Below are positions 8,264 to 64,000 of a DNA stretch of 64,000 nucleotides, piece after piece. A program made the position numbers and the translations under genes. The notes under the pieces were generated by a model. That model was not told the DNA's origin, did no database searches, and saw only the letters and a list, made by a program, of their open reading frames with translations. Each line of letters opens with the position of its first letter. Position 1 is the stretch's first letter. Source of the stretch: Alicyclobacillus sp. SO9 (lineage in GTDB: Bacteria > Bacillota > Bacilli > Alicyclobacillales > Alicyclobacillaceae); contig NZ_CP066339.1 in the NCBI RefSeq assembly GCF_016406125.1, forward strand, positions 3,100,001 to 3,164,000, in the 5' to 3' direction.

Positions 8264-8851
8264 TCAGTTTCTCTCTTGCCCAAACAATTGCTCTGATTCA
8301 AAGCGACGAATGTCATACTCGTCCCTGTCGGTTTTAATGCGTGCTTCGTAAATCAACGTGTAGATTTTCTGCTCACTGCCAGACCCAAGGCTGTCCAAGT
8401 CATTGCCCTTTAGCAGGCTGCTTGCAGAAAACTCTCCTCCTCCCCCGGTTCCCCCAGTGACCCAGATATCCAACGCGTATAAATCATCGCGACTGGGTTT
8501 ATGTCCCTCGAGGGCTGCTTCATTCACATCCGGCGGAATGCGAAAATACGCCTTCGCCATTCGCACATTTTCTCTCACCAACTCAAAATAGTACTCCCGT
8601 CCCTCAAACGGAGGGGATAAATACATAGCATGTTGGAATAAGTGCAATTGGACCGGCGTTGTAGAAATCTGCGCATCCTGATTGTGTTGCTGCAGAATGT
8701 AACCGTTGAACAGCGTCGCCTTGACGCCGAGTTCAGCAAACATCCCGCGCCATTCTTGATAGCCAATATCCGACCCTAAATCGAATTCCATAAAACCAGC
8801 ATCCTTGTTGACAATGGCTTCCGTCCTGGACTCCATTGGTACAAATGACAT
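8264..8851 (-). CDS. unknown soluble protein, first gene of the leftward sulfur operon
   Basis: A 195-residue protein beginning MSFVPMESRTEAIV at the ATG at 8851, which has GGGAGG upstream; a longer upstream reading frame lacks a ribosome site and is hydrophobic noise. No cysteine pattern, no signal peptide. A glycine-rich loop (TGGTGGGGEFS) lies near residues 135-145 and the end is charged (DEYDIRRFESEQLFGQ). I recognise no family. Its position at the head of the operon, divergent from dsrE, ties it to sulfur metabolism. Confidence 0.7.
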   Translation of the reverse strand: MSFVPMESRTEAIVNKDAGFMEFDLGSDIGYQEWRGMFAELGVKATLFNGYILQQHNQDAQISTTPVQLHLFQHAMYLSPPFEGREYYFELVRENVRMAKAYFRIPPDVNEAALEGHKPSRDDLYALDIWVTGGTGGGGEFSASSLLKGNDLDSLGSGSEQKIYTLIYEARIKTDRDEYDIRRFESEQLFGQERN

Positions 8852-9478
8852 GACAGCAGTCCTCCCAACAACTAGTGAGTGCGCACATTCTGCTGTACAA
8901 TCACTTACAGAACGCGCCAGTCCTACATACGTGCTACACAAGCACTTCAAAAGCACCAAAAAAGCGCGAGTAAAGTACTGAAAAAGATGGAGATGGAAAA
9001 CGAGAGAGATAAGAGATTTACCAGTCACGACAGCATTGACATGTAGCTAGAACCTTACTGGAATTGTACATCAAACTCTTCTGACATCACAGCATTCCAC
9101 TCATCACTGACCTGATACAAATACCCAAGGTCGTTTATAACTTAACATTATAACTGGAATGTTTTCCTAATCAATTATGAAATACCACGTTCAGCATTTC
9201 GAATTTATGTAATAGTATATACCTAAATTTCCTTGACATCGCAGTTTCAACCCACCTCAAACTGTTACCTAAGTCTGAACTAGACTTCTGTGCGATTTTT
9301 CTCGCGGCATAAAATACCCTACCCAGCAAGGTATTTACAAACTAGAGCAAGGTATTCCCGCAAGATTCCTCGTGCGGAGCGAAAGGGGGATAGAGCAGAC
9401 CGGCCAAACTCTGTAAACGCTTACAGTTTGTCCAACTCGCTTACGCTTTGTCCAACTCATTGAAGGGGGCACTATGCC
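8852..9478. promoter_or_regulatory. divergent control region of the two sulfur operons
   Basis: This 627-bp gap has no credible gene. It holds several short repeats near the dsrE side. AGCAAGGTATT occurs twice, 21 bp apart (9325 and 9346), and an inverted partial copy AAATACC lies at 9312-9318. A palindrome CTGTAA-ACGC-TTACAG spans 9411-9426. A 20-bp unit containing TTTGTCCAACTC is repeated in tandem (9421-9440 and 9441-9460), ending just before the dsrE ribosome site GAAGGGGG. TTGACA occurs at 9233-9238 but no matching -10 box is convincing. Confidence 0.5.
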
Positions 9479-9883
9479 ATGTCACAAAAGAAAAGTCGAG
9501 TCGCGATGATTGCTTCTGGTGAAGGACTTGAAACTGCCTACAAAGTTCTGAATGTTGCTACTGCAGCAGCAGCTAGTGACGCCGAAGTGACAGTGTTTTG
9601 TACGTTTGACGGTTTGATGATCATTCACAAAAACGCTTCAGAGTTGCTGAAACTGAGTCCCAGTCATGAACACTTGGCTGAAGGCTTTAAAAAGGCCAAC
9701 ATCCCGCCTGTGTCTGACATGTTGGAAATGGCGAAAGAATCCGGTGTCACGTTTATTGCTTGTCAAATGACGATGGATGCAATGCAAATTACGAGGGATG
9801 ACCTGATTGACGGAATTGACGTGGGAGGCGCCGCTGCGTTTCTGGACTTTGCCTTTGACGCAGATATATCTGTCACTTTTTAA
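9479..9883 (+). CDS. DsrE/DsrF-like sulfur-carrier family protein
   Basis: A 134-residue protein of the DsrE superfamily. It has the usual beta-alpha opening (RVAMIASGEGLETAYKVLNVA), a TVFCTFDGLMII strand with C41, and the family-typical cysteine C95 in TFIACQMTMDAM. These cysteines are candidates for carrying persulfide sulfur to TusA. The start ATG at 9479 lies 11 bp after GAAGGGGGC. It is the first gene of the plus-strand operon and is followed by tusA and the rhodanese-MBL gene. Such dsrE-tusA-rhodanese groups occur with sulfur oxidation genes in many acidophiles. Confidence 0.85.
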   Translation: MSQKKSRVAMIASGEGLETAYKVLNVATAAAASDAEVTVFCTFDGLMIIHKNASELLKLSPSHEHLAEGFKKANIPPVSDMLEMAKESGVTFIACQMTMDAMQITRDDLIDGIDVGGAAAFLDFAFDADISVTF

Positions 9884-9918
9884 TCTATCTTATCTTTCGA
9901 AACTACGGAGGGATTACA

Positions 9919-10176
9919 TTGACACAGTCCAATTACACAGTCGCAAAGAGTGTCGATTGCAAAGGTTTAGCGTGCCCGATGCCGGTAGTTCGTGCGAAAA
10001 AAGAGATACGAGGACTGGGGAACGGTGACATTTTAGAGATATTAGCCACAGACCCCGGGTCTGTCAAGGATATTCCTGCATGGGCCAACCGGGTTGGTCA
10101 CGAGTTCCTGGAGACAGTAGATGAGGACGGTCTCTTCAGACATTATGTGAAAAAATCGCAGAAGGAGGAGGCGTAG
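9919..10176 (+). CDS. tusA: TusA-family sulfur carrier protein
   Basis: An 85-residue TusA/SirA protein. The CPxP motif is present as ACPMP with the active Cys at residue 19, followed by the family helix (VVRAKKEIRGLGNGD) and the GSVKDIPAWANRVGH segment. TusA proteins accept sulfane sulfur from rhodanese or DsrE and hand it on. The start is a TTG with GGAGGG 7 bp upstream. It ends 2 bp before the rhodanese-MBL gene, so translation is coupled. Confidence 0.92.
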   Translation: MTQSNYTVAKSVDCKGLACPMPVVRAKKEIRGLGNGDILEILATDPGSVKDIPAWANRVGHEFLETVDEDGLFRHYVKKSQKEEA

Positions 10177-10178
10177 TC

Positions 10179-11327
10179 ATGACAGAATCTACATCCACGC
10201 AGAAAATGCCGGTGCCAAAGGTTTTTGAAGAAATCATGGACCACAAACCGTTGTTTATCCTCGACGTTCGCAATGAGGAAGATTATGGCGATTGGAAGAT
10301 TGAAGGCGACGCTGTTACCTCCATCAATGTGCCCTACTTTGATTTGCTGGACGATCTCAAACCGTTGGACGAGAAGTTGCCGGAAGACCAGTCGGTGCTC
10401 GTCGTATGTGCGAAAGAAGGATCATCAGAATATGTGGCAGAACAGTTGCGCGAAGAAGGTCGAACAGATGTCTTCGTGATGGAAGGTGGAATGAAGGGCT
10501 GGAGTCAATACCTCCACCCCGTAAAAGCAGGAGATTTGCCCAACGGCGGCAGTCTATACCAGTTTGTCCGTGTCGGCAAAGGTTGTCTGTCTTATATGAT
10601 TGTGTCAGGAAAGCAGGCACTGGTGGTGGACGCAGCTCGAATGACAGATGTCTATGAGCACTTCGCCAAAGACCTCGGAGTTTCCATTGAGCATGTCGTC
10701 GATACGCATCTCCACGCCGATCACATTTCTGGCGGTCGAAAGCTAGCTGCCAGCACTGGCGCACGCTACTGGCTTCCGCCGGGGGATGCAGAGCGCGTCA
10801 CGTACGACTACACCCAGCTGGCAGACGGAACGACTCTCTCCGTTGGGTCTTCAGGCGTAAAGGTTCGTGCACTTGCAACCCCCGGACACACGTCAGGAAG
10901 TACCAGCATTGTCGTCGATGACAAATATCTGCTGTCAGGCGACACGCTCTTCGTACAGTCTATCGGTCGCCCCGATTTGGCCGGTAAAGCCGGAGAATGG
11001 GCGCTAGATTTGTACTCTTCCTTGCACGAAACCTACCACAATTTAAGTCCAGATTTACATGTACTTCCGGCACACTTTGCTACTACGGGCGAACTCGATG
11101 ACAGCGGCCGTGTGATGGCGAGACTAGGGACATTGTTTGAGCGCAACAGTTCACTCGGTGTCGACGACAAAGCTGAGTTTGAACGCATGGTGACTGAGAA
11201 TCTGCCGCCTCAACCGAATGCTTACAGAGAAATTCGCGAAGTGAACATGGGACAGCTTGAGGTAGACGACTCGGCCAAGTTGGAGGAAATGGAAATCGGG
11301 CCAAACCGTTGTGCCGTCAGTGATTAG
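10179..11327 (+). CDS. rhodanese / metallo-beta-lactamase fusion, candidate persulfide dioxygenase
   Basis: A 382-residue two-domain protein. Residues 12-115 are a rhodanese domain with catalytic C77 in VVCAKEGSSEY. Residues about 125-350 are a metallo-beta-lactamase fold of the ETHE1/BlhA type with H177-x-H179-x-D181-H182 (THLHADH), the ATPGHTSGS loop and a LSGDTLF strand. Persulfide dioxygenases oxidise glutathione or low-molecular-weight thiol persulfides to sulfite with O2. Here the rhodanese precedes the MBL, the reverse of PRF/CstB-type fusions. Sulfite made here would feed the SoeA-like enzyme. ATG at 10179 follows AAGGAGGAGG. Confidence 0.88.
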   Translation: MTESTSTQKMPVPKVFEEIMDHKPLFILDVRNEEDYGDWKIEGDAVTSINVPYFDLLDDLKPLDEKLPEDQSVLVVCAKEGSSEYVAEQLREEGRTDVFVMEGGMKGWSQYLHPVKAGDLPNGGSLYQFVRVGKGCLSYMIVSGKQALVVDAARMTDVYEHFAKDLGVSIEHVVDTHLHADHISGGRKLAASTGARYWLPPGDAERVTYDYTQLADGTTLSVGSSGVKVRALATPGHTSGSTSIVVDDKYLLSGDTLFVQSIGRPDLAGKAGEWALDLYSSLHETYHNLSPDLHVLPAHFATTGELDDSGRVMARLGTLFERNSSLGVDDKAEFERMVTENLPPQPNAYREIREVNMGQLEVDDSAKLEEMEIGPNRCAVSD

Positions 11328-11463
11328 CCGTCAGCGCTTAGTGCGTGTTTAAAACGAAAAATCATTTGAAAAATCATTTAAGGACATAGGCTTCTATACA
11401 GGCGCCTGCATACCAGGGGCATATGTTACTATGTGTAAAAATTCGCTGAGGAGTGCGTTTTAG

Positions 11464-11562
11464 ATGAACATGATGTACTCCAGGTTTTTCAAACTGATGG
11501 CCGTCGGCTTTTTTGCAGTAGCCTTTGCTCCAGTGATTTATTCGTACTACCGCAAGGCGTAG
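11464..11562 (+). CDS. 32-residue small membrane protein downstream of the rhodanese-MBL gene
   Basis: A short reading frame starts at ATG 11464, preceded by GAGGAG at the right distance, and encodes MNMMYSRFFKLMAV... with a single hydrophobic helix (GFFAVAFAPVIY) and a basic end (YYRKA). Composition is that of a genuine one-pass small membrane protein. It is the last plus-strand frame before a strong terminator, so it is probably in the dsrE-tusA operon. Function unknown. Confidence 0.5.
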   Translation: MNMMYSRFFKLMAVGFFAVAFAPVIYSYYRKA

Positions 11563-11630
11563 AAGGTTGTTAGGACGCAGTCACTCGGCATTGGGAGGCT
11601 GGGGCAACCGAGTCCCTCTAACGGCAAACG

Positions 11631-11670
11631 CAGAAAGCAGCGTGGTCTTTAGCACGCTGCTTTCTGTCCG
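11631..11670. terminator. strong hairpin terminator between convergent operons
   Basis: A perfect 14-bp stem (11631-11644 with 11653-11666) with an 8-nt loop, followed by TCCGTTTCC. It lies between the sulfur operon and the convergent aldehyde dehydrogenase gene and may serve both strands. Confidence 0.7.
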
Positions 11671-11716
11671 TTTCCCCTTCATTTCACAAAGAGCGGCTCT
11701 GTGATCTGCCCTACGC

Positions 11717-13207
11717 CTACACGCCAAACCAATTCATCGGCTTTGGTGCATGATTTTGAAAAACATGTTTCAGCTCCGTGTATTCGTCAAGTCCGGAATG
11801 TCCCAACTCACGACCAATCCCAGATTGCTTGTAACCTCCCCACGGTGCTTGTGCGAAGTAGGGGTGAAAATCATTAATCCAGACCGTTCCCATGCGCAGT
11901 GCGTGTGAGACACGCTGCGCTCTGTCGGCGTCAGTCGTCCACACTGCTCCTGCCAGTCCATAGATGGTATTATTCGCTTTTCGCACAGCGTCCTCCTCGT
12001 CGACAAACCGCTCGACTGTGAGAATCGGACCAAAGGTCTCCTCCTGCACGACCCGCATGGTTTCTTGGCAGTCTATAAACAGAGTCGGCTCAAAGAAGAA
12101 TCCGTCCTTCAGTTCCGGAGATTCGGGTCGCTTGCCGCCGAGTACCAGAGAAGCACCTTCTTTCTCAGCAATGTTGACGTAGTGCTCAACTTTGTCCAAA
12201 TGTTCCCGGGAAATAAGCGGACCCATTTGCACAGTATCGTCAAATCCGTCTCCTAGTCGAATCTTAGGAATTCTCCGTTTTAATTCTTCAACGAACCTGT
12301 CGTGAATTTCATTTTCTAATAACAGTCTTGCACCAGCAGAGCAGACTTGACCTGCATGAAAAAATACTGCGTTTAACGCGTAATCCACTGCCGTGTCAAA
12401 GTCCGCATCAGCAAACACAATATTGGGATTCTTTCCGCCGAGCTCCAAGGCAATTTTCTTAAAGTTTCCGGCCGCAGCCTTCATAATTTTCCGGCCCGTG
12501 GCTCCGCCGCCGGTGAAAGAGACCAAGTCGATATCGTCCGATTCAGACAACGCTGCACCAACGGAATGCCCAGGTCCCGTAAGCACGTTAAACACACCGC
12601 GAGGGATTCCTGCCCGCTCCGCTAACTTGGCCAGTTCGAGAGATGTCAGGGGTGTCAGTTCACTGGGCTTGAGAATCACGGTGCAGCCGGCAGCCAGGGC
12701 TGGAGCAATTTTCCACGCGGCCTGCAGCAATGGGTAGTTCCAAGGTGTGATTTGGGCACAGACACCAACCGGTTCACGTACAACCATACTACTGGAATGC
12801 TCAATTGGAGACGCAATCGCTTCTCCGCCCGATTTGTCAGCCAAACCGGCGAAGTAGCGAAACACGTTAGCAATATCCTCCATATCAGCGAGACTTTCCA
12901 TCAGGGTCTTCCCGGTATTGAGCGTCTCTATTTGCGCAAACCTTTCTCGCTCTTCTTGCAGCAATTGTGCAAGGCAAAACAGCTTACGACCCCGTTCTGC
13001 GGCCGGTAAATGGGGCCACTTTCCTTTGTCAAAGGCCTGTCTCGCTGCCTCCACTGCAATCTGGACATCTTCCAGGCCAGCTTCTTCTACCTGACCAATC
13101 ACTTTCTGGTTAAAAGGGTTAATGATGTCCCTCTTCTCACCCGTTTTTGCACAAATCCAGTCTCCGTCTACATACATTTTCGCTTCGATTTCATCAATTG
13201 TTACCAT
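11717..13207 (-). CDS. NAD(P)-dependent aldehyde dehydrogenase, betaine-aldehyde dehydrogenase type
   Basis: A 496-residue ALDH superfamily enzyme of full length. N157 (TPWNYP), E255 (ALELGGKNP) and catalytic C289 (HAGQVCSAG) are all in place. The C-terminal YFAQAPWGGYKQSGIGRELG stretch is typical of betaine and aminoaldehyde dehydrogenases (GbsA/BetB). It oxidises an aldehyde to the acid with NAD(P)+. The gene starts at ATG 13207 (GGAG site) and is the third gene of a GbsR-headed operon, 27 bp after the Rieske gene. The neighbours (amidohydrolase, Rieske ferredoxin) suggest breakdown of an aromatic or quaternary amine compound rather than osmoprotectant synthesis alone. Confidence 0.85.
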   Translation of the reverse strand: MVTIDEIEAKMYVDGDWICAKTGEKRDIINPFNQKVIGQVEEAGLEDVQIAVEAARQAFDKGKWPHLPAAERGRKLFCLAQLLQEERERFAQIETLNTGKTLMESLADMEDIANVFRYFAGLADKSGGEAIASPIEHSSSMVVREPVGVCAQITPWNYPLLQAAWKIAPALAAGCTVILKPSELTPLTSLELAKLAERAGIPRGVFNVLTGPGHSVGAALSESDDIDLVSFTGGGATGRKIMKAAAGNFKKIALELGGKNPNIVFADADFDTAVDYALNAVFFHAGQVCSAGARLLLENEIHDRFVEELKRRIPKIRLGDGFDDTVQMGPLISREHLDKVEHYVNIAEKEGASLVLGGKRPESPELKDGFFFEPTLFIDCQETMRVVQEETFGPILTVERFVDEEDAVRKANNTIYGLAGAVWTTDADRAQRVSHALRMGTVWINDFHPYFAQAPWGGYKQSGIGRELGHSGLDEYTELKHVFQNHAPKPMNWFGV

Positions 13208-53899: not shown

Positions 53900-56800
53900 T
53901 TAGAACTGTAATGGCCAATTGTCTTCGTCATATTTCCAAATCACGTCTACTCCTTCATCTTGTAGCCTTGCAACAGTTCTCCATTGATGAAGTTCCCTAT
54001 TTGCAACCTTCTCCACGAAAATATCCCAGATGAGCGCCAGTCCTGTCTGGTGCAACATCTCTTCAAGAGATGTCCTTTCAATAAAAAGGCCCGTGTTATA
54101 TCCTTCTAAAGCATTATCGAAGCAGATAACCTCCCCATCTGAGTTTACCCAATAACCCTCTCTTGTTTGTCTCAAGCTAAGCTGGTTAACAACAAACTCT
54201 GAGGGTATCAAGTAACGTATAGAGCCATCAATGGACTTATCATACCCCGTTCCCCAAAGATACTCCATTGTTGTCTCTTTCAATTCTCGTTCGGTTTCTT
54301 CATCGAGCTCAACGTCCAATTTTCTATCTACAAATACAGGATGCCAAAAATACTCTCTCGAAAACGCATTGTACTCTTCAGCCCAGTAATTACGATAGGA
54401 ATAGTTATGCACTGCCTTACTCCTCGCATAATAATCTACTTTACCTTCTGGAACTAGTAATCCAGTTGCTTTCACAAATAGTTCCTTTTTGTCCTTGTAA
54501 TCATCCTCATCCCTTCTTTCTTGCCACGAAATATAGGAACTCAACAACACAAACTCCTTCTCTGATTTCCTTATCAGTGTGATATCCTCAAGTGGTGGTA
54601 TGCTTCTGTAATCATGAACCCACAGGTCCAAATTCTCTTCTGGAAGCCTGTACATCCCATTGTAGAAGTTGCGGGAGTTACCATTCTTCCTAATCAACAT
54701 TGTCGGATCTATGTCTCGTACAAATGGATTCCAGGGCCCATTGAATGCAATTTCTTTATATGTCCTCTTTCCTGTTCCTGCCCGACGTGAATCATAGTCG
54801 ATTTCACCCATTGTGTAATTATCAGATAATCTAGCTAGCAACTCATGAAAAGCTATCCACTGATATTTCTTTCCAATTCTCTCATTTGTATGTTCATGTC
54901 TATTGTCATTTTGTGTATATTCGGTATCGTATTCCCCGTGAAGTTCCACATTGTAACCAAGTTCAAATACTCTCTTCGTTGCAATATTGCTCAATGCTTG
55001 GGGGTCAAAATGGTTTTCCCATGACGAAACGACACTTTGAAAGACGTATCTTCCAAAATCCCCATACATTCCCGTTCCATACTCAGTCATCATCGACCTA
55101 AGAACGTTATTTTGACCCCAATATTTTTTCTTAAACCCTTCGGAATTGTAATCAAATTTATAGTGGTCAATATCCGCCAGTGTCGGAACGTATTCATACC
55201 ACTCGCTCCTATAGGGCGGTCTCGCCTTCGCAATATCAACAGCACCATCCTCCATCCCTAAATGGAAGGAAAATTCCACGATCCCTCTTGCATAGTCTCT
55301 CAATAAGATATGGGGATAGGTCTGTTCCTTAGCAAAAATGGTTTTATAAACATACTTGCAAAGAATGTAAATATCTTCTTTGGATGTAGCTCTTAAAGCA
55401 CACCCATACGCTGCACCATACAGCCTCTCGTATACATAAGGGTCATTCACTGCTTCAAAAGCTACCAATACGTCTATCAAAACCCCAATTCTGTCTTGAA
55501 GCAGACAAACTAAGGCCTTGGTTGCTGCATCTCTTAGTGGTCTGTTTGGACTCGTCAAAAACCACGAAATAATTATGGCTGATAGCCTTACCGATTCATC
55601 AGAAATATAAGTGCGATCTTCAGTTGTCCATGACCAATCAATGACCCTTTTGACACCTGTACTTTCTGAAAAGTGCGTACTGATGTATGGTGTCCACCAC
55701 GCATCTCGTTCCGAAAGAGATTGTTTCATCAACATGCTATGTACTCGATCTGCATTGAAGAAATTTCTGGGGCTAGTTGCAGTAAGTATTATTGAATCCC
55801 AAAATTTATCGAAGGTGCCTTTTCTCCTCAATACTTCTTTGTTCACGTACGGCAGTACCTTCTCGCTGATGGTGTCCACCTTTCTCCAAATCAGACTACC
55901 AACAAAAGCTTCCACCACTGGATAAAAGGATTTACAATAAGGTGCTACCTCATATAGTTCCATCCCAATGGCCTCTGGCAGTTGAATAGTAAGTGCTTCG
56001 ATAAGCCCCTTATTGATTTCACACGATCTTTCATCTTTCACATAACCATGTAACTCTTGCCCTTCTTGGAAGGATAGACCCGGGTTATCCTTAATTAAGT
56101 AGTGCTGCAGCAAATACGATACAGAAATGTGATCATCAAATCTTTCATAAGCAAAATAAACCCCAGTTACGTACTCTTGGCCATTGTAAAATAGGTTTTC
56201 AGTGATAACACCTTCATTGATAAGTTCATCAAGGAACCGTCGCCAATCACTTGTGTAGTCTCTAGTTTCATCACATACAAGTTTGTTTGCATCCTTATAA
56301 GGAACATAACCTAGTTTGCTTTCCATTTTCCTAGCAATCAGTGACATCACGGCGCTTCTCACTAAATTGATATTAGACGGATAGTCGAGCTTAGAGGCGG
56401 TACTTAACCTTTCATTGATGCTATTTACATAAAAATCCAAGATTTGAGATATCCCCTCCAACCCCTCGGGAATCACCGTAAGTCCTGAATTATACAGTCC
56501 TTCACAAAATATCTTTAGAAACAACGGGTTTTGAAATTCTGGATGGAGTAGTGGGACACTCGGTTGTTGAATGTTATAACTATCAAAAAACAGTTTTGAA
56601 GCTTCATACTCTACTTCCGCAAAGCCATAATGTGTGACCCTTATGGCAACGTCATTGGTAATAATATCAGAAGGTAAAAGCAGTGTTTCATAGGACGTTC
56701 TGACACTAATCACCAATCCTATCCATTTATATTTCCTGACAGTTCTTATAAACCCTCTGATATGCTCCGTCCAGAAAAACCTTCCTCGACCTTCATTTAT

Positions 56801-58111
56801 GGCGTCGATCATAATCAATGCCCTTGAACCAATAGACTGAGCCTTCGCATTTATTGCTCCTAAAAACTCCTCTTCGTTCATATCTACTCTAAGTTGGTTG
56901 TTCAGAATTTGTGTCCATGGGTTGTCATCGTTGGTGAAATGCTGTCCCAAGAGTAGAATGGTTGGTATTCCCAACTCAGCCTTATGTTTTGCCACGTCTG
57001 CGAGCATATGCGACTTTCCAATCCCCGCTTCACCTTTCAATATCATTATCGGTGTGTTGGCAAGTAAGGAACTTGGTCCGGTCAGAAAATCGTAAAGCTC
57101 CGTTAAAGCAACTTCCAACTGCCTTAACGAATATAGCTCCGAGTTGAATTGATTACTTTCCAACGAATGCATATTCCCTTTGTTATCTTGGTTCGCCTTG
57201 CCTTCTTTGCCTCTATTTTTGTAGTAATATTCAACACAAATTCCGACTGAATCACTCATCTTAAGACAAATATTCGCCATTTTCGTTAATGGAACATCAT
57301 TCATTTCGCTTAAGACAATGCCATCAAAGGCTTCCCTAAGAGTTTTTGAAGCGTCAGAAATGGCCTCAGCCGCCGACCTTAGGGTGTCTTCCCTCACTCC
57401 ATTCACTATACTCTTAATATCCTTTTGAACTTGACGATACAGATGTTCAAATTGCTCACAGAAGGTCTGCTCTCTGGTAATCCCGTCAAAAGTCCTTGAT
57501 AGATCCAACTCGAAGTTCAGCTTAGGGGTGTACCTTTTGCCTAGTGAATCAATGCTCACATCTAATCTGTCTCTAAACCATCCCTCGGAAAAGTCCTCAG
57601 CAGCAAACCAGAAAAACCTTGTACCAACATGCTTTTCTTGAGAGAGTCTTGAAAGCAATTCAGAGCTGCCCCAAAACTCGAATTCAATGTGTCTACCCTG
57701 AGCAGCAGCATGTTCTGTCCACGTTTGGACGTGTTTATTCCACTTATCCATAAACCACTTTTCGTTATCAATTCTTGGGTCCTGCCTGTCCAACGGAATA
57801 CAAATGTAGTATTTCACCAAGCTCGAGTGCGTCCGAAATGCAGTCTTGAAAGACTTGTCCAATTGTTTCCACTGAGAATCTCCCATTGAATCAAAGTATT
57901 TAGCTTGCCAACCATATTCTTTACCATTCTTTAATCGACAGTATGCTTCTACACCCCCATCCGGTGCTCCCACTCTTATAAACGAGATTTTTCCCCTGAT
58001 TTCCTCTCCACGAGCGATTTGACATACCAGCTCTTCAAACGCATTATTTTGTGAATTATTATAACTTCTTATGTTTCTCCAACTAAATTGCGTAATTGGT
58101 ATCACCCTCAT
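53900..58111 (-). CDS. AVAST-like (Avs) STAND NTPase with N-terminal Mrr-like nuclease domain
   Basis: A 1,403-residue protein. Residues about 20-75 hold a PD-(D/E)xK Mrr-like site: E26, D51 in GAPDGGVEAY with E55, and Q69-A-K71. The P-loop NTPase follows with Walker A GEAGIGKSH (about 360-368) and Walker B LIMIDAINEG (about 432-441); D-A-I-N-E is typical of Avs proteins. The remaining 900 residues are a large helical sensor region without recognised repeats. Avs proteins recognise phage terminase or portal and then activate the effector; the Mrr-type effector points to the Avs4 group. Start ATG 58111 has no clear ribosome site. The gene is AT-richer than its neighbours and stands alone. Confidence 0.78.
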   Translation of the reverse strand: MRVIPITQFSWRNIRSYNNSQNNAFEELVCQIARGEEIRGKISFIRVGAPDGGVEAYCRLKNGKEYGWQAKYFDSMGDSQWKQLDKSFKTAFRTHSSLVKYYICIPLDRQDPRIDNEKWFMDKWNKHVQTWTEHAAAQGRHIEFEFWGSSELLSRLSQEKHVGTRFFWFAAEDFSEGWFRDRLDVSIDSLGKRYTPKLNFELDLSRTFDGITREQTFCEQFEHLYRQVQKDIKSIVNGVREDTLRSAAEAISDASKTLREAFDGIVLSEMNDVPLTKMANICLKMSDSVGICVEYYYKNRGKEGKANQDNKGNMHSLESNQFNSELYSLRQLEVALTELYDFLTGPSSLLANTPIMILKGEAGIGKSHMLADVAKHKAELGIPTILLLGQHFTNDDNPWTQILNNQLRVDMNEEEFLGAINAKAQSIGSRALIMIDAINEGRGRFFWTEHIRGFIRTVRKYKWIGLVISVRTSYETLLLPSDIITNDVAIRVTHYGFAEVEYEASKLFFDSYNIQQPSVPLLHPEFQNPLFLKIFCEGLYNSGLTVIPEGLEGISQILDFYVNSINERLSTASKLDYPSNINLVRSAVMSLIARKMESKLGYVPYKDANKLVCDETRDYTSDWRRFLDELINEGVITENLFYNGQEYVTGVYFAYERFDDHISVSYLLQHYLIKDNPGLSFQEGQELHGYVKDERSCEINKGLIEALTIQLPEAIGMELYEVAPYCKSFYPVVEAFVGSLIWRKVDTISEKVLPYVNKEVLRRKGTFDKFWDSIILTATSPRNFFNADRVHSMLMKQSLSERDAWWTPYISTHFSESTGVKRVIDWSWTTEDRTYISDESVRLSAIIISWFLTSPNRPLRDAATKALVCLLQDRIGVLIDVLVAFEAVNDPYVYERLYGAAYGCALRATSKEDIYILCKYVYKTIFAKEQTYPHILLRDYARGIVEFSFHLGMEDGAVDIAKARPPYRSEWYEYVPTLADIDHYKFDYNSEGFKKKYWGQNNVLRSMMTEYGTGMYGDFGRYVFQSVVSSWENHFDPQALSNIATKRVFELGYNVELHGEYDTEYTQNDNRHEHTNERIGKKYQWIAFHELLARLSDNYTMGEIDYDSRRAGTGKRTYKEIAFNGPWNPFVRDIDPTMLIRKNGNSRNFYNGMYRLPEENLDLWVHDYRSIPPLEDITLIRKSEKEFVLLSSYISWQERRDEDDYKDKKELFVKATGLLVPEGKVDYYARSKAVHNYSYRNYWAEEYNAFSREYFWHPVFVDRKLDVELDEETERELKETTMEYLWGTGYDKSIDGSIRYLIPSEFVVNQLSLRQTREGYWVNSDGEVICFDNALEGYNTGLFIERTSLEEMLHQTGLALIWDIFVEKVANRELHQWRTVARLQDEGVDVIWKYDEDNWPLQF

Positions 58112-58773
58112 TTCGAACAAGGAGTACGGGCTATGAATCCCAAAAGGTCCAGACAACGTCTGCTGTACCCTCACGTTCCAGATACAGTCAATTGCACACC
58201 GACTAGCCGGACCCTGGCTAACCACTTATCTAGGTCTTCGTCAAGGAAGAGATCGCATGACTATAATTTATCAGAAGTGCTATTAGTAAAAAAGTTCCTA
58301 TAAATATCACGAGCATTGGTGTAAGAGTCTTAGCAGTGTTTCTCCGAACCGACTACAACAAGACGAAGCGTTCACAACCTTGACAAACCCTAGAATATTC
58401 TGGGCAACTAGTCCTCCAGCATACAAATACTTCTGCATCTTCCACATCTCAAAGATACAAAAAATGCAGCGTTCGGATATGCTTGCGCTTCGATTATTTC
58501 TTGCAGATCCTAATCGAAGTATGTGTCATTAACGCCTCCTTATTCGCCAAATAGATTGGATACGCTTCCCAGTAACGGGTCAAACGGAAAATTATCCAAG
58601 CGACCAATCGACCTCATTCATCCTGATGTATAATGAAACCACGAAAGATTTCGGACGATTGTGTTCGTCAAGCAAAAAGTTGACCCACCTCGGCGTGGTC
58701 AACTATTAGATTAGCGAACACAGACGATCCCTATATACCACGTGAATCTTTATAATCTAAGGTGGTTTTGCAA
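58112..58773. promoter_or_regulatory. 660-bp divergent gap between the Avs and SEC-C genes
   Basis: No credible gene. A stem GTTGACC (58679-58685) with GGTCAAC (58697-58703) is followed on the minus strand by TTTTT, which fits an intrinsic terminator pointing at the Avs gene; it may insulate the two genes or be the leftover of a lost gene. Confidence 0.4.
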
Positions 58774-59904
58774 ATGTTTGTACCGATGAATGAAGCAAAA
58801 AAATATCAGTTCAAACCCTATGAAGAGTGCCCTTGTGAGAGTGGACAGAAATACAAGTTCTGTTGCTACGCTAAAAGCAGAAATTCTAAAGTTGATTTCA
58901 GAGACTATAGCGCTACTCGGATTACTGCGGAAGGGCGCAGATTATTAAAAGATACTGAGTTTAAAATGTGCTTTGCGTTTGACACATCTGAGTGCAGCAA
59001 GGACTTAATTGGCGCCCACTCAATCCAAAACAATGGGGTATTAGACAAGATCTCCGTAGAAAATCATGTTTACGCCTTGAGTTCGGAAATTGATCAAAAC
59101 ACAATGTATCCTCAATTGGAATTTACGCCTATCGGTAAAAACCAGGCTAGTATATTTTCGGGGTTTTGTAAAAAGCATGATGAAGATTACTTTAAATGCA
59201 TTGAAGACAAGGATTACGAAGGAACACTTGAACAAAATTATTGGTTTGGGTTTAGAGCCTTATGTTTTGAACTGCACAGAAAATTAAGGCTGAAGAAGAG
59301 CTTTGCTAATTTTTTCAAAAAATACCCCGGAGCCACTAGGACACCTTCCATTTATACAGAGTATTACAACACTAAACTTAGCATTAGGGACTCATGGACA
59401 GAGTATGAAAGATTCAAGAGTGCGTATGCTAAGAAATCCTTCAATAACTTGGAATCCATTGTTAAAGTGGTGCCATTTACAGTTGGATTTACAGCTACAA
59501 CTTCTGTGGGTGTAGGTATGGACATGGAAGGCAACCTAGCAGCAGACATTTATAATTACAATGACAAGCATTTCATCCCTAACTTATACGTTTCTGTTAT
59601 TCCTAAAGAAAACATGACGCTTATCATTATTTCAAGGTTTCACGAAGATAACTGCTATAAAAATATCCTATCGCAATTAAATGGTAACGAAAATGATGAG
59701 AAACTATTTCGTTATATTAGCTTTTGCTTAGCCGAATACAGTGAGAATGTCTACTTCTCTCCTGCTGTAATTGATTCTTTGAGTGAGGCCAACAAGAGGA
59801 AAATAAAGACTGCCTTCATGGGAGTATTAAGTCCAACACCTGAACTAAGACTTCGTAATCTTTATGCGACGACATCGTTGAATCTGTTCGACTTAAAACT
59901 GTAA
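58774..59904 (+). CDS. SEC-C domain protein with HNH-like Cys/His set, probable defence nuclease
   Basis: 376 residues from ATG 58774, 8 bp after AAGGTGG. Residues 17-32 are a SEC-C zinc motif (CPCESGQKYKFCC; C19, C21, C30, C31). A second set C66-x7-C74-x7-H82 (GAHSIQ) with C132-x2-H135 (GFCKKHDEDYF) looks like a treble-clef/HNH arrangement. The C-terminal 200 residues are unassigned. Similar domain pairs occur in phage-defence neighbourhoods; nuclease activity is inference. It stands between the Avs gene and a recombinase fragment. Confidence 0.65.
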   Translation: MFVPMNEAKKYQFKPYEECPCESGQKYKFCCYAKSRNSKVDFRDYSATRITAEGRRLLKDTEFKMCFAFDTSECSKDLIGAHSIQNNGVLDKISVENHVYALSSEIDQNTMYPQLEFTPIGKNQASIFSGFCKKHDEDYFKCIEDKDYEGTLEQNYWFGFRALCFELHRKLRLKKSFANFFKKYPGATRTPSIYTEYYNTKLSIRDSWTEYERFKSAYAKKSFNNLESIVKVVPFTVGFTATTSVGVGMDMEGNLAADIYNYNDKHFIPNLYVSVIPKENMTLIIISRFHEDNCYKNILSQLNGNENDEKLFRYISFCLAEYSENVYFSPAVIDSLSEANKRKIKTAFMGVLSPTPELRLRNLYATTSLNLFDLKL

Positions 59905-59951: not shown

Positions 59952-60227
59952 TTACCGGGACATGATCCAACCCCGTGATAGAATCTCCCACACTGTCTTA
60001 CCACCTAATTCACGTGGCATCTTGACTGTCCTCACGAAAATGTGCCCACGTCCTCTAATTGTCCTTGACACTATTCCTCCCAGATCAACGTTTAAGAGCT
60101 CGCTCACTGCAAGTCCCGAATTGATTCCGAGAACAAACAGTACATAAGACCGCAAACTACTAGCTCGCAAAATTTTCCTTATGGGTTCACTCTGTGTGCG
60201 GTCACGAATGAGTTGGACTAATTCCAT
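59952..60227 (-). pseudogene. truncated tyrosine recombinase fragment lacking the catalytic Arg
   Basis: 91 codons from ATG 60227 (AAGGGAGG site). SYVLFVLGINSGLAVSELLNVDL matches the start of a phage-type integrase catalytic domain (usual GLRVSDLL), but the first catalytic Arg is Ala. The frame ends soon after, so the HxxR and Tyr residues are missing. A relic of an integration event. Confidence 0.7.
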
Positions 60228-60594: not shown

Positions 60595-61560
60595 GTGATT
60601 ATACATCAGGTTGTCCGTATGAAGGAAACTGGAAGAGTCGTCTATTCAACTCACACCCCCTGCTCCATGATCTTTCCCCTGGTCGTAGTTCGTACCGTCG
60701 AAGTAGCTCTGGGATTTCAACGAATACGAGACAAAAAAAAGATATCCTCTATTTCCCGGTATTTACGTCAGCCCTTCACGCCCCTACCCGAGCTTACGAT
60801 GGTTTGTGACGGTGAAGTTGAATTTATTCCCTACGATTCGAGATATCCCGACTATGGAGCGCTTCATGTATCGGCACTGGAGTTGCTTGATGGGCAGCAC
60901 CGTCTGTTTGGTGCAGAGCTCTTGTACCGAAGGTCAAAACATAGCTACGATACAATGCTAAGAATGAAAGTCTACCACAATCTCACTCACGATGAAAGGA
61001 TACAGGTGTTTTGTGACCTCAACGAGTATGCGACTAAACTACCACAGAGCCACATTCGACTTCTGAGGGACAAATCGTTCGCAACACTTGAATCCATAAG
61101 ACTGGAACAAAGTGAAAATTCACCTCTCAATGGTCTTATTGCTCTAGATGGAAAACGGGGCAAGGCGTTTGGAAAATTTATTACCCTTGAATCCTTTGCT
61201 CGGGCTATTGAGGAGATTTGTAAATCACCTAAACTTGGTGCATTACAATCCGAAAAGCGTTCAGAACTCATAGAGATGTTTTTCACATATGTGTTTTCAG
61301 AGCTAAGCGACTTTTTAACACCTGAGTATCGACTTCTCAATTCTTACGGGGTTGCATTCCTTGGTGCTGTAGGCAGGGAATACATGCAAGAGTGTCTTAG
61401 AAACGGGGAACTGGACTCTGACCGTTTTCAGGGTCTTATCACTCTCCTGCGTCGGCATGAGTGGAGCAAGGAAAAAGGAGTGACAGGTATGGTTTCTGGT
61501 CATCAGCATGCACAAAAGTTTCTTCGTGACGTGGTGTTCCGGGTAAATGCGGCCGGCTAA
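60595..61560 (+). CDS. DGQHR-domain (DndB-like) protein
   Basis: 321 residues from GTG 60595, 7 bp after TGGAGGTC. The DGQHR motif is at residues 99-103 (ELLDGQHRLFGAEL), in the ParB-like fold of the DndB family. DndB controls phosphorothioate DNA modification genes; related proteins occur in other DNA modification systems. No dndCDE, dpd or similar genes are visible within the window, so it is an orphan here. It is convergent with the GHKL-peptidase gene. Confidence 0.8.
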   Translation: MIIHQVVRMKETGRVVYSTHTPCSMIFPLVVVRTVEVALGFQRIRDKKKISSISRYLRQPFTPLPELTMVCDGEVEFIPYDSRYPDYGALHVSALELLDGQHRLFGAELLYRRSKHSYDTMLRMKVYHNLTHDERIQVFCDLNEYATKLPQSHIRLLRDKSFATLESIRLEQSENSPLNGLIALDGKRGKAFGKFITLESFARAIEEICKSPKLGALQSEKRSELIEMFFTYVFSELSDFLTPEYRLLNSYGVAFLGAVGREYMQECLRNGELDSDRFQGLITLLRRHEWSKEKGVTGMVSGHQHAQKFLRDVVFRVNAAG

Positions 61561-61974: not shown

Positions 61975-63390
61975 CTACTTACCAGAGACGGACAGCATCT
62001 CTCCAGCCACTTTTCCTAGCAAAACGGTCAATCCGTGTTCAAACTCCAGCGATTCATCATCTGTCCCGGTAGTAGCGTGACACAATTCATGCAGCAAGGT
62101 TCCCGCAAAGTCATGTAACGTGGCCAACTGGTCTCTTCGAATAACGATCATCTCTCTTGCGGGGTCCCACAGACCCAGAGCCTGATTGTGGTCATAGCTG
62201 TTCATTCGCATCGTCTCAGAGATTTTGATAGCTTTAACTCTCTTTGCGTTACGTCCAACAACTTTGACGAGTCTATCTCTGTATGCAAATACAGCCTGCT
62301 CCTTCTTGGATAAAGCTTCTGGTTCAATGAAATTGAACTGGAAACTATCGTTCCACTGATTACGATATTCCCCTAAATCAATAATGGGGTTACCTTCAAA
62401 GTCACGAATCCTTCCAAACTTCGCTGCAATATCCTCCGGTACAATGATGATACGTTTTCCGTCGTCTTCTGCGTGTGATACCAGGGAACCACCGGTTCGA
62501 AGGTCTTCAGAAGTAAGAAATATCACATTGTCTGTGGAGTTAAGAATTTTACAGGCATGCAAAGCAACATCGGTCCAGTCTAACTCGTCGTGCATAGTTC
62601 CTCGCTGAAAGTTTTGCAAGTCGTTTGCGAGGTCATCGGCAACTGACGATGAACTACAGGCTAACAGAATCGACTTTACCCGATCCGTGTAGGCGGAACG
62701 TCCGACATTCGTTCTCTCTCGATTCAACGCCTTTCGCAGCTTGGCGGACGGTGAGGTAACATTGTACGAAAATAAGAAATTATCCTCTTCAGCGATACAC
62801 AAGCCATTTACGTATATCCTCCCCTTCAGCCTTGGCTGTCTACGAATCACGCTACCTTTGGAAGTTGTCTCCAGAACTTCTTCTTCGCTAAACTGGAGAA
62901 AATATGACTTGGCAGTCTCGATGTCAGTGTCTTTTACTCCATCCATAACAAAGTCCGTTCCTATAAATGCTTTGTCAGACGGTGCTGAAATGTATGCGTG
63001 CAGCGTGGCGACGTCGGAAAACCCATGCTTGCCTGCTTTAGCAACTGTGATATCCCCATGCTTTGAGAAAATTGAAATTTTGACCTTGTGACGGTCAAAG
63101 GTAGCGAAAGCATCCTTCAGTCCAAATCCAAATTTACCAATCACAATATCTTTATTCTTCAACTTTTCCTTGTTCTCGTTCTGTGTTAAATGCTCATATT
63201 TGAGTCCTCGTCCAAAGTCACGAAGGTGCCATTTTCCTTGGTCGTCTTTGAAAATCTCTGGTGGTTGTGTCTTGGTTAAAACTTGCTCGTCCAATGCATT
63301 CGCAAGTATCTCACGAACAGCGTACGCAACCGACCAATGTTCAAGAACCTTCTCAATATTCAGGTCAAATAACCGTGCTTCCCCTGACAT
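61975..63390 (-). CDS. GHKL ATPase fused to a C-terminal HExxH metallopeptidase-like domain
   Basis: 471 residues. The N-terminal GHKL (Hsp90/MutL/histidine-kinase-type) ATP site has E27-x3-N31 (REILANALDEQ), D58-F-G-R-G62 and G85-K-F-G-F-G90 (GKFGFGLKDA). There is no phospho-acceptor domain, so it is not a kinase. Residues 434-438 are HELCH in LLHELCHATTG, followed by LEFEHGL with E449/E451 as a possible third ligand; this is a zinc-peptidase signature. Start ATG 63390 after GGGGGTGGGG. It follows an unknown gene on the same strand by 137 bp. A defence role rests on the neighbourhood; the architecture itself is visible in the sequence. Confidence 0.78.
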   Translation of the reverse strand: MSGEARLFDLNIEKVLEHWSVAYAVREILANALDEQVLTKTQPPEIFKDDQGKWHLRDFGRGLKYEHLTQNENKEKLKNKDIVIGKFGFGLKDAFATFDRHKVKISIFSKHGDITVAKAGKHGFSDVATLHAYISAPSDKAFIGTDFVMDGVKDTDIETAKSYFLQFSEEEVLETTSKGSVIRRQPRLKGRIYVNGLCIAEEDNFLFSYNVTSPSAKLRKALNRERTNVGRSAYTDRVKSILLACSSSSVADDLANDLQNFQRGTMHDELDWTDVALHACKILNSTDNVIFLTSEDLRTGGSLVSHAEDDGKRIIIVPEDIAAKFGRIRDFEGNPIIDLGEYRNQWNDSFQFNFIEPEALSKKEQAVFAYRDRLVKVVGRNAKRVKAIKISETMRMNSYDHNQALGLWDPAREMIVIRRDQLATLHDFAGTLLHELCHATTGTDDESLEFEHGLTVLLGKVAGEMLSVSGK

Positions 63391-63527
63391 AGCCCCACCC
63401 CCATGTGGTTAATTCTACCACGAGATGGAAATTCAAATCTATTCCAGTAGGGAAATAGTCGACCTAACGTGCACTTTAACCACCACCGGATTATGTAGCG
63501 GGGACTGCCAGTGCGGTCCCCAAATTA

Positions 63528-64000
63528 TCATTGCACCTTCCAAGTCAATGCTCGTACATGACTGTCAATCTGCGGTCGCACCAGGTCAATTACGTTTTGT
63601 CTTGTCGACCGATATGTTCTCACGACCTCATCCCAGGCAGCGTCGATGTTAAACCGATTGCCATCAACTACGATTGTCCATGCGAGTTCCGCATTTAACG
63701 GTATCTCGATCTTGTTCTCTCTGCAGTACAAATACCCAATGTCTGAAGGATATCCATCTCTCAGACCCTGTACGTAGGCCGTCAACTCCCTGGATGACCA
63801 ATACTTAATAGTGCCTAACTCGGCCGCTACTAGCGTCATTTCCCAATCCTTCAGCCCTTCCTCACGGCTGCCAACATAATACACCACTACGCCATCGGAG
63901 AGAACAGCACTCTCCAGGTGATCAAATGAGCAACCATCTTTCAGTAGCGAGTCTCTCAAAAACTGACTATTTGTTAAACCCCGAATGGGAACAAAACCGG
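63528..64000 (-). CDS. unknown protein, 5' part cut by right window edge
   Basis: At least 156 codons, open to the right edge (GFVPIRGLTNSQFLRDSLLK...). A TTG at 63959 could start a shorter product, but coding character continues upstream of it. No motif recognised; the C-terminus is mixed alpha-beta with one Cys in YLYCRENK. It lies just upstream of the GHKL-peptidase gene and may form an operon with it. Confidence 0.6.
   Translation of the reverse strand, partial: GFVPIRGLTNSQFLRDSLLKDGCSFDHLESAVLSDGVVVYYVGSREEGLKDWEMTLVAAELGTIKYWSSRELTAYVQGLRDGYPSDIGYLYCRENKIEIPLNAELAWTIVVDGNRFNIDAAWDEVVRTYRSTRQNVIDLVRPQIDSHVRALTWKVQ

What the first reader, a model, noticed from the sequence alone, without database searches (positions are those of the whole stretch)
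61975..64000. GHKL ATPase-metallopeptidase fusion with an unknown partner gene
An Hsp90/MutL-type ATP site at the N-terminus and a terminal HELCH zinc motif share one 471-residue chain. ATP binding could gate proteolysis, in the way of an alarm that cuts a target on infection. The gene upstream has no known domain and the two are on one strand in a defence island. I know of no described system with this pair, so it is the best novel candidate here.
Basis: partly seen in the sequence, partly recalled or inferred. Interest (0 to 1): 0.75.

Follow-up and report, generated by a model that had tools for sequence, protein, structure and literature searches.

The report
Solo ATP-gated protease, candidate phage defence
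A single bacterial gene joins an Hsp90/gyrase-like ATP switch to a zinc-protease-like domain; rare relatives sit in phages, plasmids and immune islands of bacteria and archaea, so it is probably an undescribed one-gene anti-phage system, which remains to be tested.

Summary
The 471-aa protein at 61975-63390 (-) has all four GHKL ATP-site motifs and ends in a zincin-type domain with HELCH (434-438). Of 16 full-length close relatives, 16 keep every GHKL residue checked and 15 keep H434/E435/H438/D445/E451. E451, not E449, is the likely third zinc ligand. Models agree: Hsp90 N-domain, and a Wss1/minigluzincin-like fold. The upstream gene is not a partner: it is absent from 17 other fusion loci, and relatives carry it without the fusion. 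The fusion is rare and patchy, not core. In one genus it is cargo of a chromosomal hotspot; in 8 of 10 other genomes scanned, that slot's largest ORF matches a known or candidate defence family (Lamassu, Tiamat, Avs2, type I restriction, CBASS and others). Near-identical DNA (99%) carrying the gene stands beside Lamassu in one genome and a helicase-nuclease in another. One member lies inside a type I restriction operon; others are near Wadjet or ShosA genes or in phage contigs. Best reading: a one-gene immune protein whose GHKL clamp licenses a zinc protease, by analogy with VcSduA (GHKL plus nuclease). Defence is inferred, not shown. A distant branch in phages keeps a phage-side role open.

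The parts
61975..63390 (-). GHKL-zincin fusion gene, 471 aa, ATG start, stop included
62746..63390 (-). GHKL (Bergerat) ATPase module, about residues 1-215; modelled fold of Hsp90 N-domain
   Evidence: motif conservation 16 of 16; VIA-align Z 10.9, rmsd 2.8, 134 aligned to Hsp90 N-domain 8agi_B, model residues 4-167
63298..63312 (-). N box E27-x3-N31 (presumed catalytic Glu and Mg-ligand Asn; roles by recall from the superfamily)
   Evidence: 16 of 16 conserved
62251..62745 (-). middle/transducer-like region, about residues 216-380, with the invariant N223-R-E-R...V229-G-R231 stretch; boundaries approximate
   Evidence: model elements
61978..62250 (-). C-terminal zincin (minigluzincin/Wss1-like) domain, about residues 381-471
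   Evidence: model of residues 262-471, mean pLDDT 85.0; Z 10.3 to Wss1 5xbv, rmsd 3.0, 107 aligned
62077..62091 (-). HELCH zinc motif, residues 434-438
   Evidence: 15 of 16 keep HExxH
62056..62058 (-). D445, conserved acidic residue 7 after H438
   Evidence: 15 of 16; also in distant members L013, L014, L045, L046
62038..62040 (-). E451, likely third zinc ligand, near the start of the helix after HExxH
   Evidence: 15 of 16; helix 448-469 in the model

Best explanation
It is a stand-alone, one-gene immune protein. A GHKL ATPase module with a transducer-like middle region binds ATP and dimerises as a clamp on an infection-related trigger (DNA or a protein-DNA complex). The closed state licenses the C-terminal zinc protease to cut a phage or host protein and stop the infection. 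Shown here: the two-domain architecture, conservation of both sites, purifying selection, accessory distribution, single-gene behaviour, and repeated residence near defence genes, including one hotspot where other genomes carry known systems in the same slot. Inferred: ATP turnover, dimer clamp, proteolysis, trigger, target, and protection itself.
For: ATP-site residues 16 of 16 and zinc-site residues 15 of 16 conserved. Purifying selection: whole-protein dN/dS about 0.08 for L008/L009; dN 0.21 and 0.15 with dS not computable (saturated) for L005/L015 and L041/L042. Fold: Hsp90 N-domain, Z 10.9, rmsd 2.8, 134 aligned; Wss1, Z 10.3, rmsd 3.0, 107 aligned. Hotspot: the gene lies between conserved genes in G483, G873 and G927. 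L058 and L059 share the gene plus about 500 bp at 99.0% identity, but the neighbour is a PDC-S37/Hhe helicase-nuclease in one and LmuA+LmuB in the other. The same slot was fetched from 18 more genomes. In 10 of them I scanned the largest cargo ORF: 8 of 10 matched PADLOC at E<=1e-20 (Lamassu, Tiamat, Ppl over a short C-terminal stretch only, Avs2, PDC-S73, type I REase, PDC-S28, CBASS). Other contexts: window 3.7 kb from Avs2, L004 2 kb from JetD and JetC, L007 66 bp after a ShosA-like gene, L008 SIR2/HerA/Piwi, L010 between hsdS and hsdR, L011 4.5 kb from type I RM genes. PADLOC on 69 neighbours of 11 loci: 115 models matched; on 64 proteins of 9 random stretches: 4 models. Phage-like contigs: L015, L016, L017. 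Precedent: VcSduA, GHKL plus nuclease, both sites needed for defence (PMC12137116, passages read).
Against: No experiment. Five of 12 distinct non-viral locations (L005, L006, L009, L042, L043) have no strong known defence gene near by in what I scanned; L005 and L042 have only DNA methyltransferases 6-7 kb away and L043 a caspase-like gene 4.5 kb away. The random control is chromosomal and from one phylum, the neighbour set was picked by hand, and one protein can match many models. Distant homologues are in many phages (69 of 50,697 records with the Moorella phage protein as query, itself included), which points to a phage-side job for that branch. One haloarchaeal member (L011) has lost the zinc site, and partial or broken copies exist (L012, L044, L060, L061). 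Two of the ten hotspot ORFs had no PADLOC match and 8 of 18 slots were not scanned. YbeY, a metal-dependent endoribonuclease, is also among the top C-domain fold matches (7y7o, Z 8.0, rmsd 4.0, 112 aligned). Trigger and target are unknown.
Confidence: 0.56

Rival explanations
1. It is a mobile-element or phage-side protein (rIIA-like): GHKL-zincins help a phage, prophage or plasmid to evade or disarm host defences or to take over the host, and the copies in islands are remnants of such elements.
For: Distant GHKL-zincins are encoded by phages, e.g. Moorella phage MTATph1 (L013) and a match over 96% of that protein in Exiguobacterium phage vB_EalM-132. The window protein hits phrog_6077 at 7.8e-19. 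Foldseek against viral models gives unnamed phage proteins first (best E 1.5e-20) and then many RIIA proteins (best 2.5e-08, TMq 0.32); L013 weakly matches the RIIA phrog (E 0.032). Close members lie in phage-like contigs and on a conjugative plasmid.
Against: The distant branch is only about 22-31% identical to the window protein in the matched parts, and several members lack HExxH (L023-L026 and L052 of 11 examined; L027 is cut by its contig end). Close members sit in a chromosomal defence hotspot and a restriction operon. RIIA profiles did not match the window protein (E up to 1).
Confidence: 0.22
2. It is a DNA-maintenance protease, like Wss1/SPRTN: a GHKL clamp on DNA positions the protease to clear DNA-protein crosslinks or stalled proteins.
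For: Among the closest solved folds of the C-terminal domain are Wss1 and 6mdx, titled 'Mechanism of protease dependent DPC repair'. GHKL relatives GyrB and MutL act on DNA (recalled). L006 has SbcCD-type genes near by by annotation and L016 an S24 peptidase gene.
Against: Very patchy distribution (1 of 41 genomes in its family) is odd for repair. The third-ligand position is Glu, not the His recalled for Wss1/SprT. The fold similarity is a common zincin arrangement.
Confidence: 0.12
3. The C-terminal domain is not a protease: it is a binding domain, or a metal enzyme of another kind such as a YbeY-like RNase, on a GHKL switch.
For: No activity has been shown; L011 lacks the zinc residues; YbeY (7y7o, Z 8.0, rmsd 4.0, 112 aligned) and the Aquifex protein 1oz9 (Z 8.8, rmsd 3.1, 102 aligned) are among the top fold matches.
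Against: The glutamate of HExxH, the general base of zincin peptidases, is kept in 15 of 16 close members and in distant members L013, L014, L045, L046. Wss1 scores higher (Z 10.3).
Confidence: 0.06
4. It is a two-gene system with the upstream 275-aa gene.
For: Same strand, 137 bp apart; a second, partial copy of the upstream family lies 2 kb from the fusion's start.
Against: The upstream gene is absent from 17 other fusion loci and from the plasmid collection, and occurs without the fusion in two relatives.
Confidence: 0.04

Closest known systems
VcSduA, GHKL-containing Shedu of Vibrio cholerae (PMC12137116, passages read); paraMORC3 in earlier terms (PMC2292703, passages read)
   Same: One chain, N-terminal GHKL ATPase, C-terminal effector enzyme, works as a single gene; both the ATPase and the nuclease residue were needed for defence.
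   Different: The effector there is a PD-(D/E)xK nuclease (DUF4263); here a zinc metallopeptidase-like fold. No Pfam or PADLOC match to it.
MORC/paraMORC GHKL+S5 families in restriction loci (PMC2292703, passages)
   Same: GHKL ATPases, patchy, in restriction-modification contexts; some with C-terminal nuclease or TIR domains.
   Different: 'peptidase', 'metallo' and 'HEXXH' occur 0 times in the text. No direct sequence comparison was made.
Phage rIIA and rIIA-like proteins (PMC7824862, passages read)
   Same: N-terminal GHKL with a variable C-terminal domain; RIIA models among the viral fold matches.
   Different: No match of the window protein to RIIA profiles.
Wss1 and minigluzincin zymogens (abylysin 4jiu, jannalysin 4jix)
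   Same: Compact zincin fold, HExxH helix followed by another helix; Wss1 Z 10.3 (rmsd 3.0, 107 aligned), 4jiu Z 8.0 (2.2, 83), 4jix Z 7.9 (2.8, 86).
   Different: Not fused to an Hsp90-like ATPase (recalled); sequence similarity negligible (Wss1p E 1.2); the third ligand of Wss1 is His by recall.
Zincin-like MPTases of phage and plasmid polyvalent proteins (PMC5512222, passages read)
   Same: Three-stranded sheet, HEXXH helix, then a helix with the Glu ligand; mobile-element context.
   Different: 'GHKL' and 'Hsp90' occur 0 times in that text.

Membership tests
GHKL (Bergerat-fold) ATPases | Motifs I-IV (ExxxN, DxGxG, GxxGxG, G-T) | tested here: met
   16 of 16 members keep each residue checked
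GHKL (Bergerat-fold) ATPases | Bergerat fold | tested here: met
   Hsp90 N-domain 8agi_B Z 10.9, rmsd 2.8, 134 aligned; full-length Hsc82 Foldseek E 2.2e-09
GHKL (Bergerat-fold) ATPases | ATP binding, hydrolysis and ATP-driven dimerisation | not testable with these tools
   needs biochemistry
Zincin metallopeptidases (gluzincin type) | HExxH on a helix after a small sheet, Glu on the following helix | tested here: met
   model elements; H434/E435/H438/E451 kept in 15 of 16
Zincin metallopeptidases (gluzincin type) | H434, H438 and E451 close enough in space to bind one zinc | not tested
Zincin metallopeptidases (gluzincin type) | Proteolytic activity | not testable with these tools
   needs biochemistry
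SprT / WLM (SPRTN, Wss1) families | Pfam gathering score | tested here: not met
   SprT-like 17.1 against 25.6 bits; WLM 14.3 against 26
SprT / WLM (SPRTN, Wss1) families | Fold similarity | tested here: met
   Wss1 5xbv Z 10.3, rmsd 3.0, 107 aligned; 6mdx (SPRTN by recall) Z 8.1, rmsd 2.8, 93 aligned; a shared fold only
Shedu (VcSduA / paraMORC3) | C-terminal DUF4263 PD-(D/E)xK nuclease | tested here: not met
   no such match in Pfam or PADLOC at E up to 1; the C-terminal domain models as a zincin
MORC/paraMORC | GHKL followed by an S5 domain | tested here: inconclusive
   the middle region is modelled, but no S5 assignment was made
rIIA | Sequence match to RIIA profiles | tested here: not met
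   window protein: no RIIA phrog at E up to 1
rIIA | Overall fold | tested here: inconclusive
   RIIA models among Foldseek viral hits, TMq about 0.3
Anti-phage defence system | Recurrent residence near defence genes | tested here: met
   7 of 12 distinct non-viral locations; hotspot; control with the limits stated
Anti-phage defence system | Protection against phage | not testable with these tools
   needs phage challenge
Named PADLOC systems | Match to a PADLOC-DB 2.0.0 model | tested here: not met
   0 families at E up to 1

The most novel reading that the evidence does not exclude
A new class of one-gene immunity in bacteria and archaea: an ATP-driven GHKL clamp that encircles invading DNA or a DNA-bound complex and, on closing, switches on a built-in Wss1-like zinc protease that cuts the bound phage replication or packaging protein. 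The same two-domain module also exists in a distant branch carried by phages, which would make it a tool used on both sides of the conflict.
Probability: 0.2. Interest if true: 0.87.

Novelty: new variant of a known kind. Interest (0 to 1): 0.66.

Why it matters
GHKL switches are known to gate nucleases and DNA gates. If this protein defends, it would extend the principle to a protease and add a one-gene family shared by bacteria, haloarchaea, plasmids and phages. It makes a sharp test possible: two point mutants (ATP site, zinc site) in one small gene, against phage panels. A GHKL-zincin branch in phages also offers a handle on the old question of what rIIA-like GHKL proteins do.

Tried and rejected
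Partner gene: rejected. Known-system labels (PADLOC, which includes Tiamat models, and Shedu models by recall): no match. A core or housekeeping role: rejected by distribution. E. coli genomes: the Citrobacter remnant's 348-bp DNA found nothing in the collection (5,426 genomes); that tests only similar DNA, not the protein. Zinc-site geometry: not measured, because model coordinates are not in the Python box. Foldseek on the C-terminal model gave no match at E<=0.001; the zincin neighbours came from the VIA-align second look, where YbeY also appears. Sequence profiles against the PDB gave mainly gyrase/Hsp90-type hits for the whole-protein profile (best E 0.0066) and chance-level hits for the C-part (Wss1p E 1.2). 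Promoter/terminator scan around the gene: no more sites than in shuffles. An empty-site analysis of the window's own island was not done. Literature: ten searches of open PMC texts; no listing or passage that I saw describes a GHKL-metallopeptidase protein. I saw passages of five papers and only listings of the rest. One of the five, DefensePredictor (PMC13092281), shows predicted systems with an HATPase domain in a figure whose details and supplements I did not see, so an overlap there is not excluded.

Rows dropped: L009 was left out of the neighbour scan as a near duplicate of L008 (98.9% protein identity over the part compared). Truncated L019, L044 and L051 were left out of the conservation count; L058 and L059 came later and were checked by motif only. 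Four of 68 control ORFs that were cut by the stretch ends were not scanned.
Full report
WHAT IS THERE. The ORF at 61975-63390 (minus strand) codes for 471 residues from an ATG. The N-terminal part carries the four GHKL motifs and the C-terminus carries HELCH. Curated profiles are nearly silent: the best Pfam match is SprT-like at 17.1 bits, below its cutoff of 25.6; NCBIfam gives only sub-threshold hits, the best to a sacsin ATP-binding-like domain; PADLOC gives nothing at E up to 1; PHROGs gives phrog_6077 (function unknown) at 7.8e-19 over residues 16-257.

FAMILY. A protein search of plasmids found 9 of 72,556 records: seven full-length relatives at 41-54% identity (Priestia, Croceicoccus, Euzebya, Natrinema, archaeon DL31, Salinibacter, Halorussus), one distant homologue, and one C-terminal remnant in Citrobacter. 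The species-representative collection gave one, a Ktedonobacteraceae MAG at 60% (that scan used patterns from a single sequence, so it finds close relatives only). Viral contigs gave 13 loci: four full-length close relatives, one cut by its contig end, and eight distant. A second scan added one partial locus. In the window's own phylum the match rate at E<=1e-10 was 2 of 398 genomes, one of them the window's own and the other distant; in the class 6 of 398, namely the own genome, three full-length, one truncated and one distant. In families, at E<=1e-20: 5 of 394 (three full-length, two partial or broken), 1 of 104, 2 of 38, and 1 of 41 in the window's own family. The gene is rare and scattered, not core.

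ACTIVE SITES. In an alignment of 16 full-length members E27, N31, D34, D58, G60, G62, G85, G88, G90, G144, T145 and N223, R224, E225, R226, V229, G230, R231 are invariant (16 of 16). H434, E435, H438, D445 and E451 are kept in 15 of 16; the exception is the Halorussus copy (L011), which lost all five but kept the ATP site. The two further hotspot copies L058 and L059 keep the HExxH signature. Selection is purifying in the pairs compared: L008/L009 dN 0.0048 and dS 0.063; L005/L015 and L041/L042 dN 0.21 and 0.15 with dS not computable; L043/L044, where one copy is truncated, dN 0.020 and dS 0.070 over the 296 codons left.

FOLD. AlphaFold2 with six sequences gave mean pLDDT 80.3 for the whole protein and 85.0 for residues 262-471. 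Foldseek against the PDB puts full-length Hsp90/HtpG first (6xlg, E 2.2e-09). VIA-align gives the Hsp90 N-domain Z 10.9, rmsd 2.8, 134 aligned (8agi_B). For the C-terminal model Foldseek alone finds nothing at E<=0.001. The second look by VIA-align ranks yeast Wss1 first (5xbv, Z 10.3, rmsd 3.0, 107 aligned), with the Aquifex protein 1oz9 (Z 8.8, rmsd 3.1, 102), 6mdx (SPRTN by recall; Z 8.1, rmsd 2.8, 93), minigluzincin zymogens (4jiu, Z 8.0, rmsd 2.2, 83; 4jix, Z 7.9, rmsd 2.8, 86) and the endoribonuclease YbeY (7y7o, Z 8.0, rmsd 4.0, 112) below it. So the fold alone does not prove a protease; HExxH with its glutamate argues for one. The topology, small sheet, HExxH helix 425-441, then helix 448-469 with E451 near its start, is that described for zincin-like peptidases with a Glu ligand (PMC5512222, passages). 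Metal geometry could not be measured.

THE UPSTREAM GENE IS NOT A PARTNER. The complete upstream ORF is 275 aa (63528-64355). It has no Pfam or PHROG match and no plasmid match. In 101 genomes searched it has four places in the window's own genome (this one; a partial copy 2 kb from the fusion's start; one about 46 kb away with a stop inside; one about 1.3 Mb away) and one in each of two relatives. The fusion has only one place in the own genome and none in those two relatives. A tblastn of the upstream protein against all 128 loci held found it in none of the 17 other fusion loci (L004-L011, L015-L018, L041-L043, L058, L059).

CONTEXT. Of 12 distinct non-viral locations, seven have a known defence gene within about 8 kb: the window (Avs2 at 3.7 kb), L004 (JetD and JetC of Wadjet, 2 kb and more away), L007 (a ShosA-like DprA protein 66 bp upstream), L008 (HerA by profile, SIR2 and Piwi by annotation), L010 (between hsdS and hsdR of a type I restriction operon, 51-bp gaps on both sides), L011 (type I restriction genes from 4.5 kb, by annotation) and the L041/L058/L059 hotspot. 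The other five are L005 and L042 (methyltransferases 6-7 kb away), L043 (a caspase-like gene 4.5 kb away), L006 and L009 (none found, but only one and two neighbours were scanned singly). As a control, 64 proteins from 9 random stretches of six of the host genomes matched 4 PADLOC models at E<=1e-20: mad3 (3 proteins) and three RtcR-type regulator models (1 protein each). A hand-picked set of 69 neighbours from 11 fusion loci matched 115 models, among them Avs2, pAgo, type I MTase and REase, JetC, PDC-S37, Hhe and PDC-S18 (the first 25 are listed). One protein can match many models, and the control is chromosomal and from one phylum, so the contrast is indicative only.

HOTSPOT. In one genus, three genomes (G483, G873, G927) carry the gene between the same conserved genes. 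G873 and G927 share the gene and about 500 bp upstream at 99.0% identity over 1,951 bp. Behind it G873 (and G483) has a DUF4011-helicase-REase protein matching PDC-S37/Hhe, and G927 has LmuA and LmuB of Lamassu. The left boundary gene is in 70 of 75 genomes of the genus, the right one in 48 of 75 (E<=1e-50). I fetched the slot from 18 further genomes; none has the fusion. From 10 of these 18 I scanned the largest ORF: 8 of 10 matched PADLOC at E<=1e-20, namely LmuB, TmtA (Tiamat), Ppl (short C-terminal stretch only), Avs2, PDC-S73, type I REase, PDC-S28 and CBASS E1-E2; the ORFs of L116 and L118 did not. The other eight slots were not scanned. So in this genus the gene is one cargo of a defence hotspot and travels without a fixed partner. 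This is the strongest evidence for a defence role.

PHAGE CONTIGS AND THE DISTANT BRANCH. L015 has the gene 1.3 kb from one end of a viral contig with an amidase gene 1.4 kb further on; L016 has it directly after an Arc-type gene, with a P22-type antirepressor and an S24 peptidase near by; L017 has it after a Mor-type activator gene. That these are temperate phages is inferred from those genes. L018 could not be assigned. A distant branch (about 22-31% identical to the window protein in the matched parts) occurs in phages and on a plasmid: with the Moorella phage protein as query, 69 of 50,697 phage records match at E<=1e-5, two of them over at least 80% of the query, one being the query itself. 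Whether those phages are lytic was not checked. Of 11 distant members examined, HExxH is present in five (L013, L014, L020, L021, L022) and absent in six, one of which (L027) is cut by its contig end. L014 carries three GHKL modules in one chain with one zincin. The signature HExxH-x6-D-x4-FE is shared by L013, L014, L045, L046 and the close clade.

MECHANISM. Best reading: ATP-driven closure of a GHKL dimer clamp licenses the protease. The nearest tested precedent is VcSduA, where a GHKL domain is fused to a DUF4263 nuclease and both E27A (ATP site) and K557A (nuclease) abolish protection (PMC12137116, passages). What the protease cuts and what triggers it are unknown. The slot between hsdS and hsdR in Salinibacter recalls the place of the PrrC anticodon nuclease (recalled, not from a call), which would fit a guard of restriction; one locus is too little to lean on.

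NOVELTY. Nothing I saw in ten literature searches describes a GHKL-metallopeptidase protein, and PADLOC-DB 2.0.0 has no model that matches it. Domain-wise it is a new variant of the GHKL-gated single-protein effector; if the protease is the effector, that is a new effector for this class.

Noticed in passing
C-termini of L006, L015, L016, L017, L041, L042, L043, L058, L059; L012 remnant: Nine of 18 full-length members and the Citrobacter remnant end, by eye, in a short basic and mostly aromatic tail after a variable linker, which resembles (recalled) MinD-type membrane anchors; the window, archaeal and Salinibacter members lack it. Hydrophobic moments were computed but not tested against a control.
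   Followed up: partly
53900-58225 (-): Avs2 (AVAST type 2) gene: PADLOC E 0, NCBIfam Avs2 1197.8 bits against a cutoff of 1000.
   Followed up: no
60595-61560 (+): A DGQHR/DndB-like protein (DGQHR 100.6 bits, above its cutoff of 58.85); whether other dnd genes lie in the window was not searched.
   Followed up: no
58762-59904 (+): 380-aa protein with a SEC-C-like cysteine motif near its start; the weak PADLOC E2 matches cover only that part.
   Followed up: no
59952-60227 (-): Short ORF that looks by eye like a fragment of a tyrosine recombinase; not tested with a profile.
   Followed up: no
L003:7514-8677, 8677-10386, 10461-12521 (+), beyond the window end: SIR2-like gene followed by a HerA gene, then an AAA_15/OLD-TOPRIM protein.
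   Followed up: no
L014 and L046: Large proteins (1104 and 1021 aa) of the distant branch with a single C-terminal HExxH domain; L014 has three GHKL modules.
   Followed up: partly
L044 (G638:C6) against L043 (G656:C2): Two species of one genus share the 5' part of the gene and its upstream DNA at 97.5% over 1,051 bp; in one the peptidase half is gone.
   Followed up: partly
Hotspot between homologues of L041:2074-3453 and L041:11024-12355: A chromosomal defence hotspot of one genus, 1.4-16 kb between the boundary genes in the 18 slots fetched; two slots (L116, L118) hold large proteins without PADLOC matches that may be new systems.
   Followed up: partly
G000 contig C1: 3163528-3164355, 3165420-3165833, 1876683-1877336, 3209420-3209698: A small family without Pfam or PHROG match (tested for the first two) has four places in this genome, two of them close together by the fusion.
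   Followed up: partly
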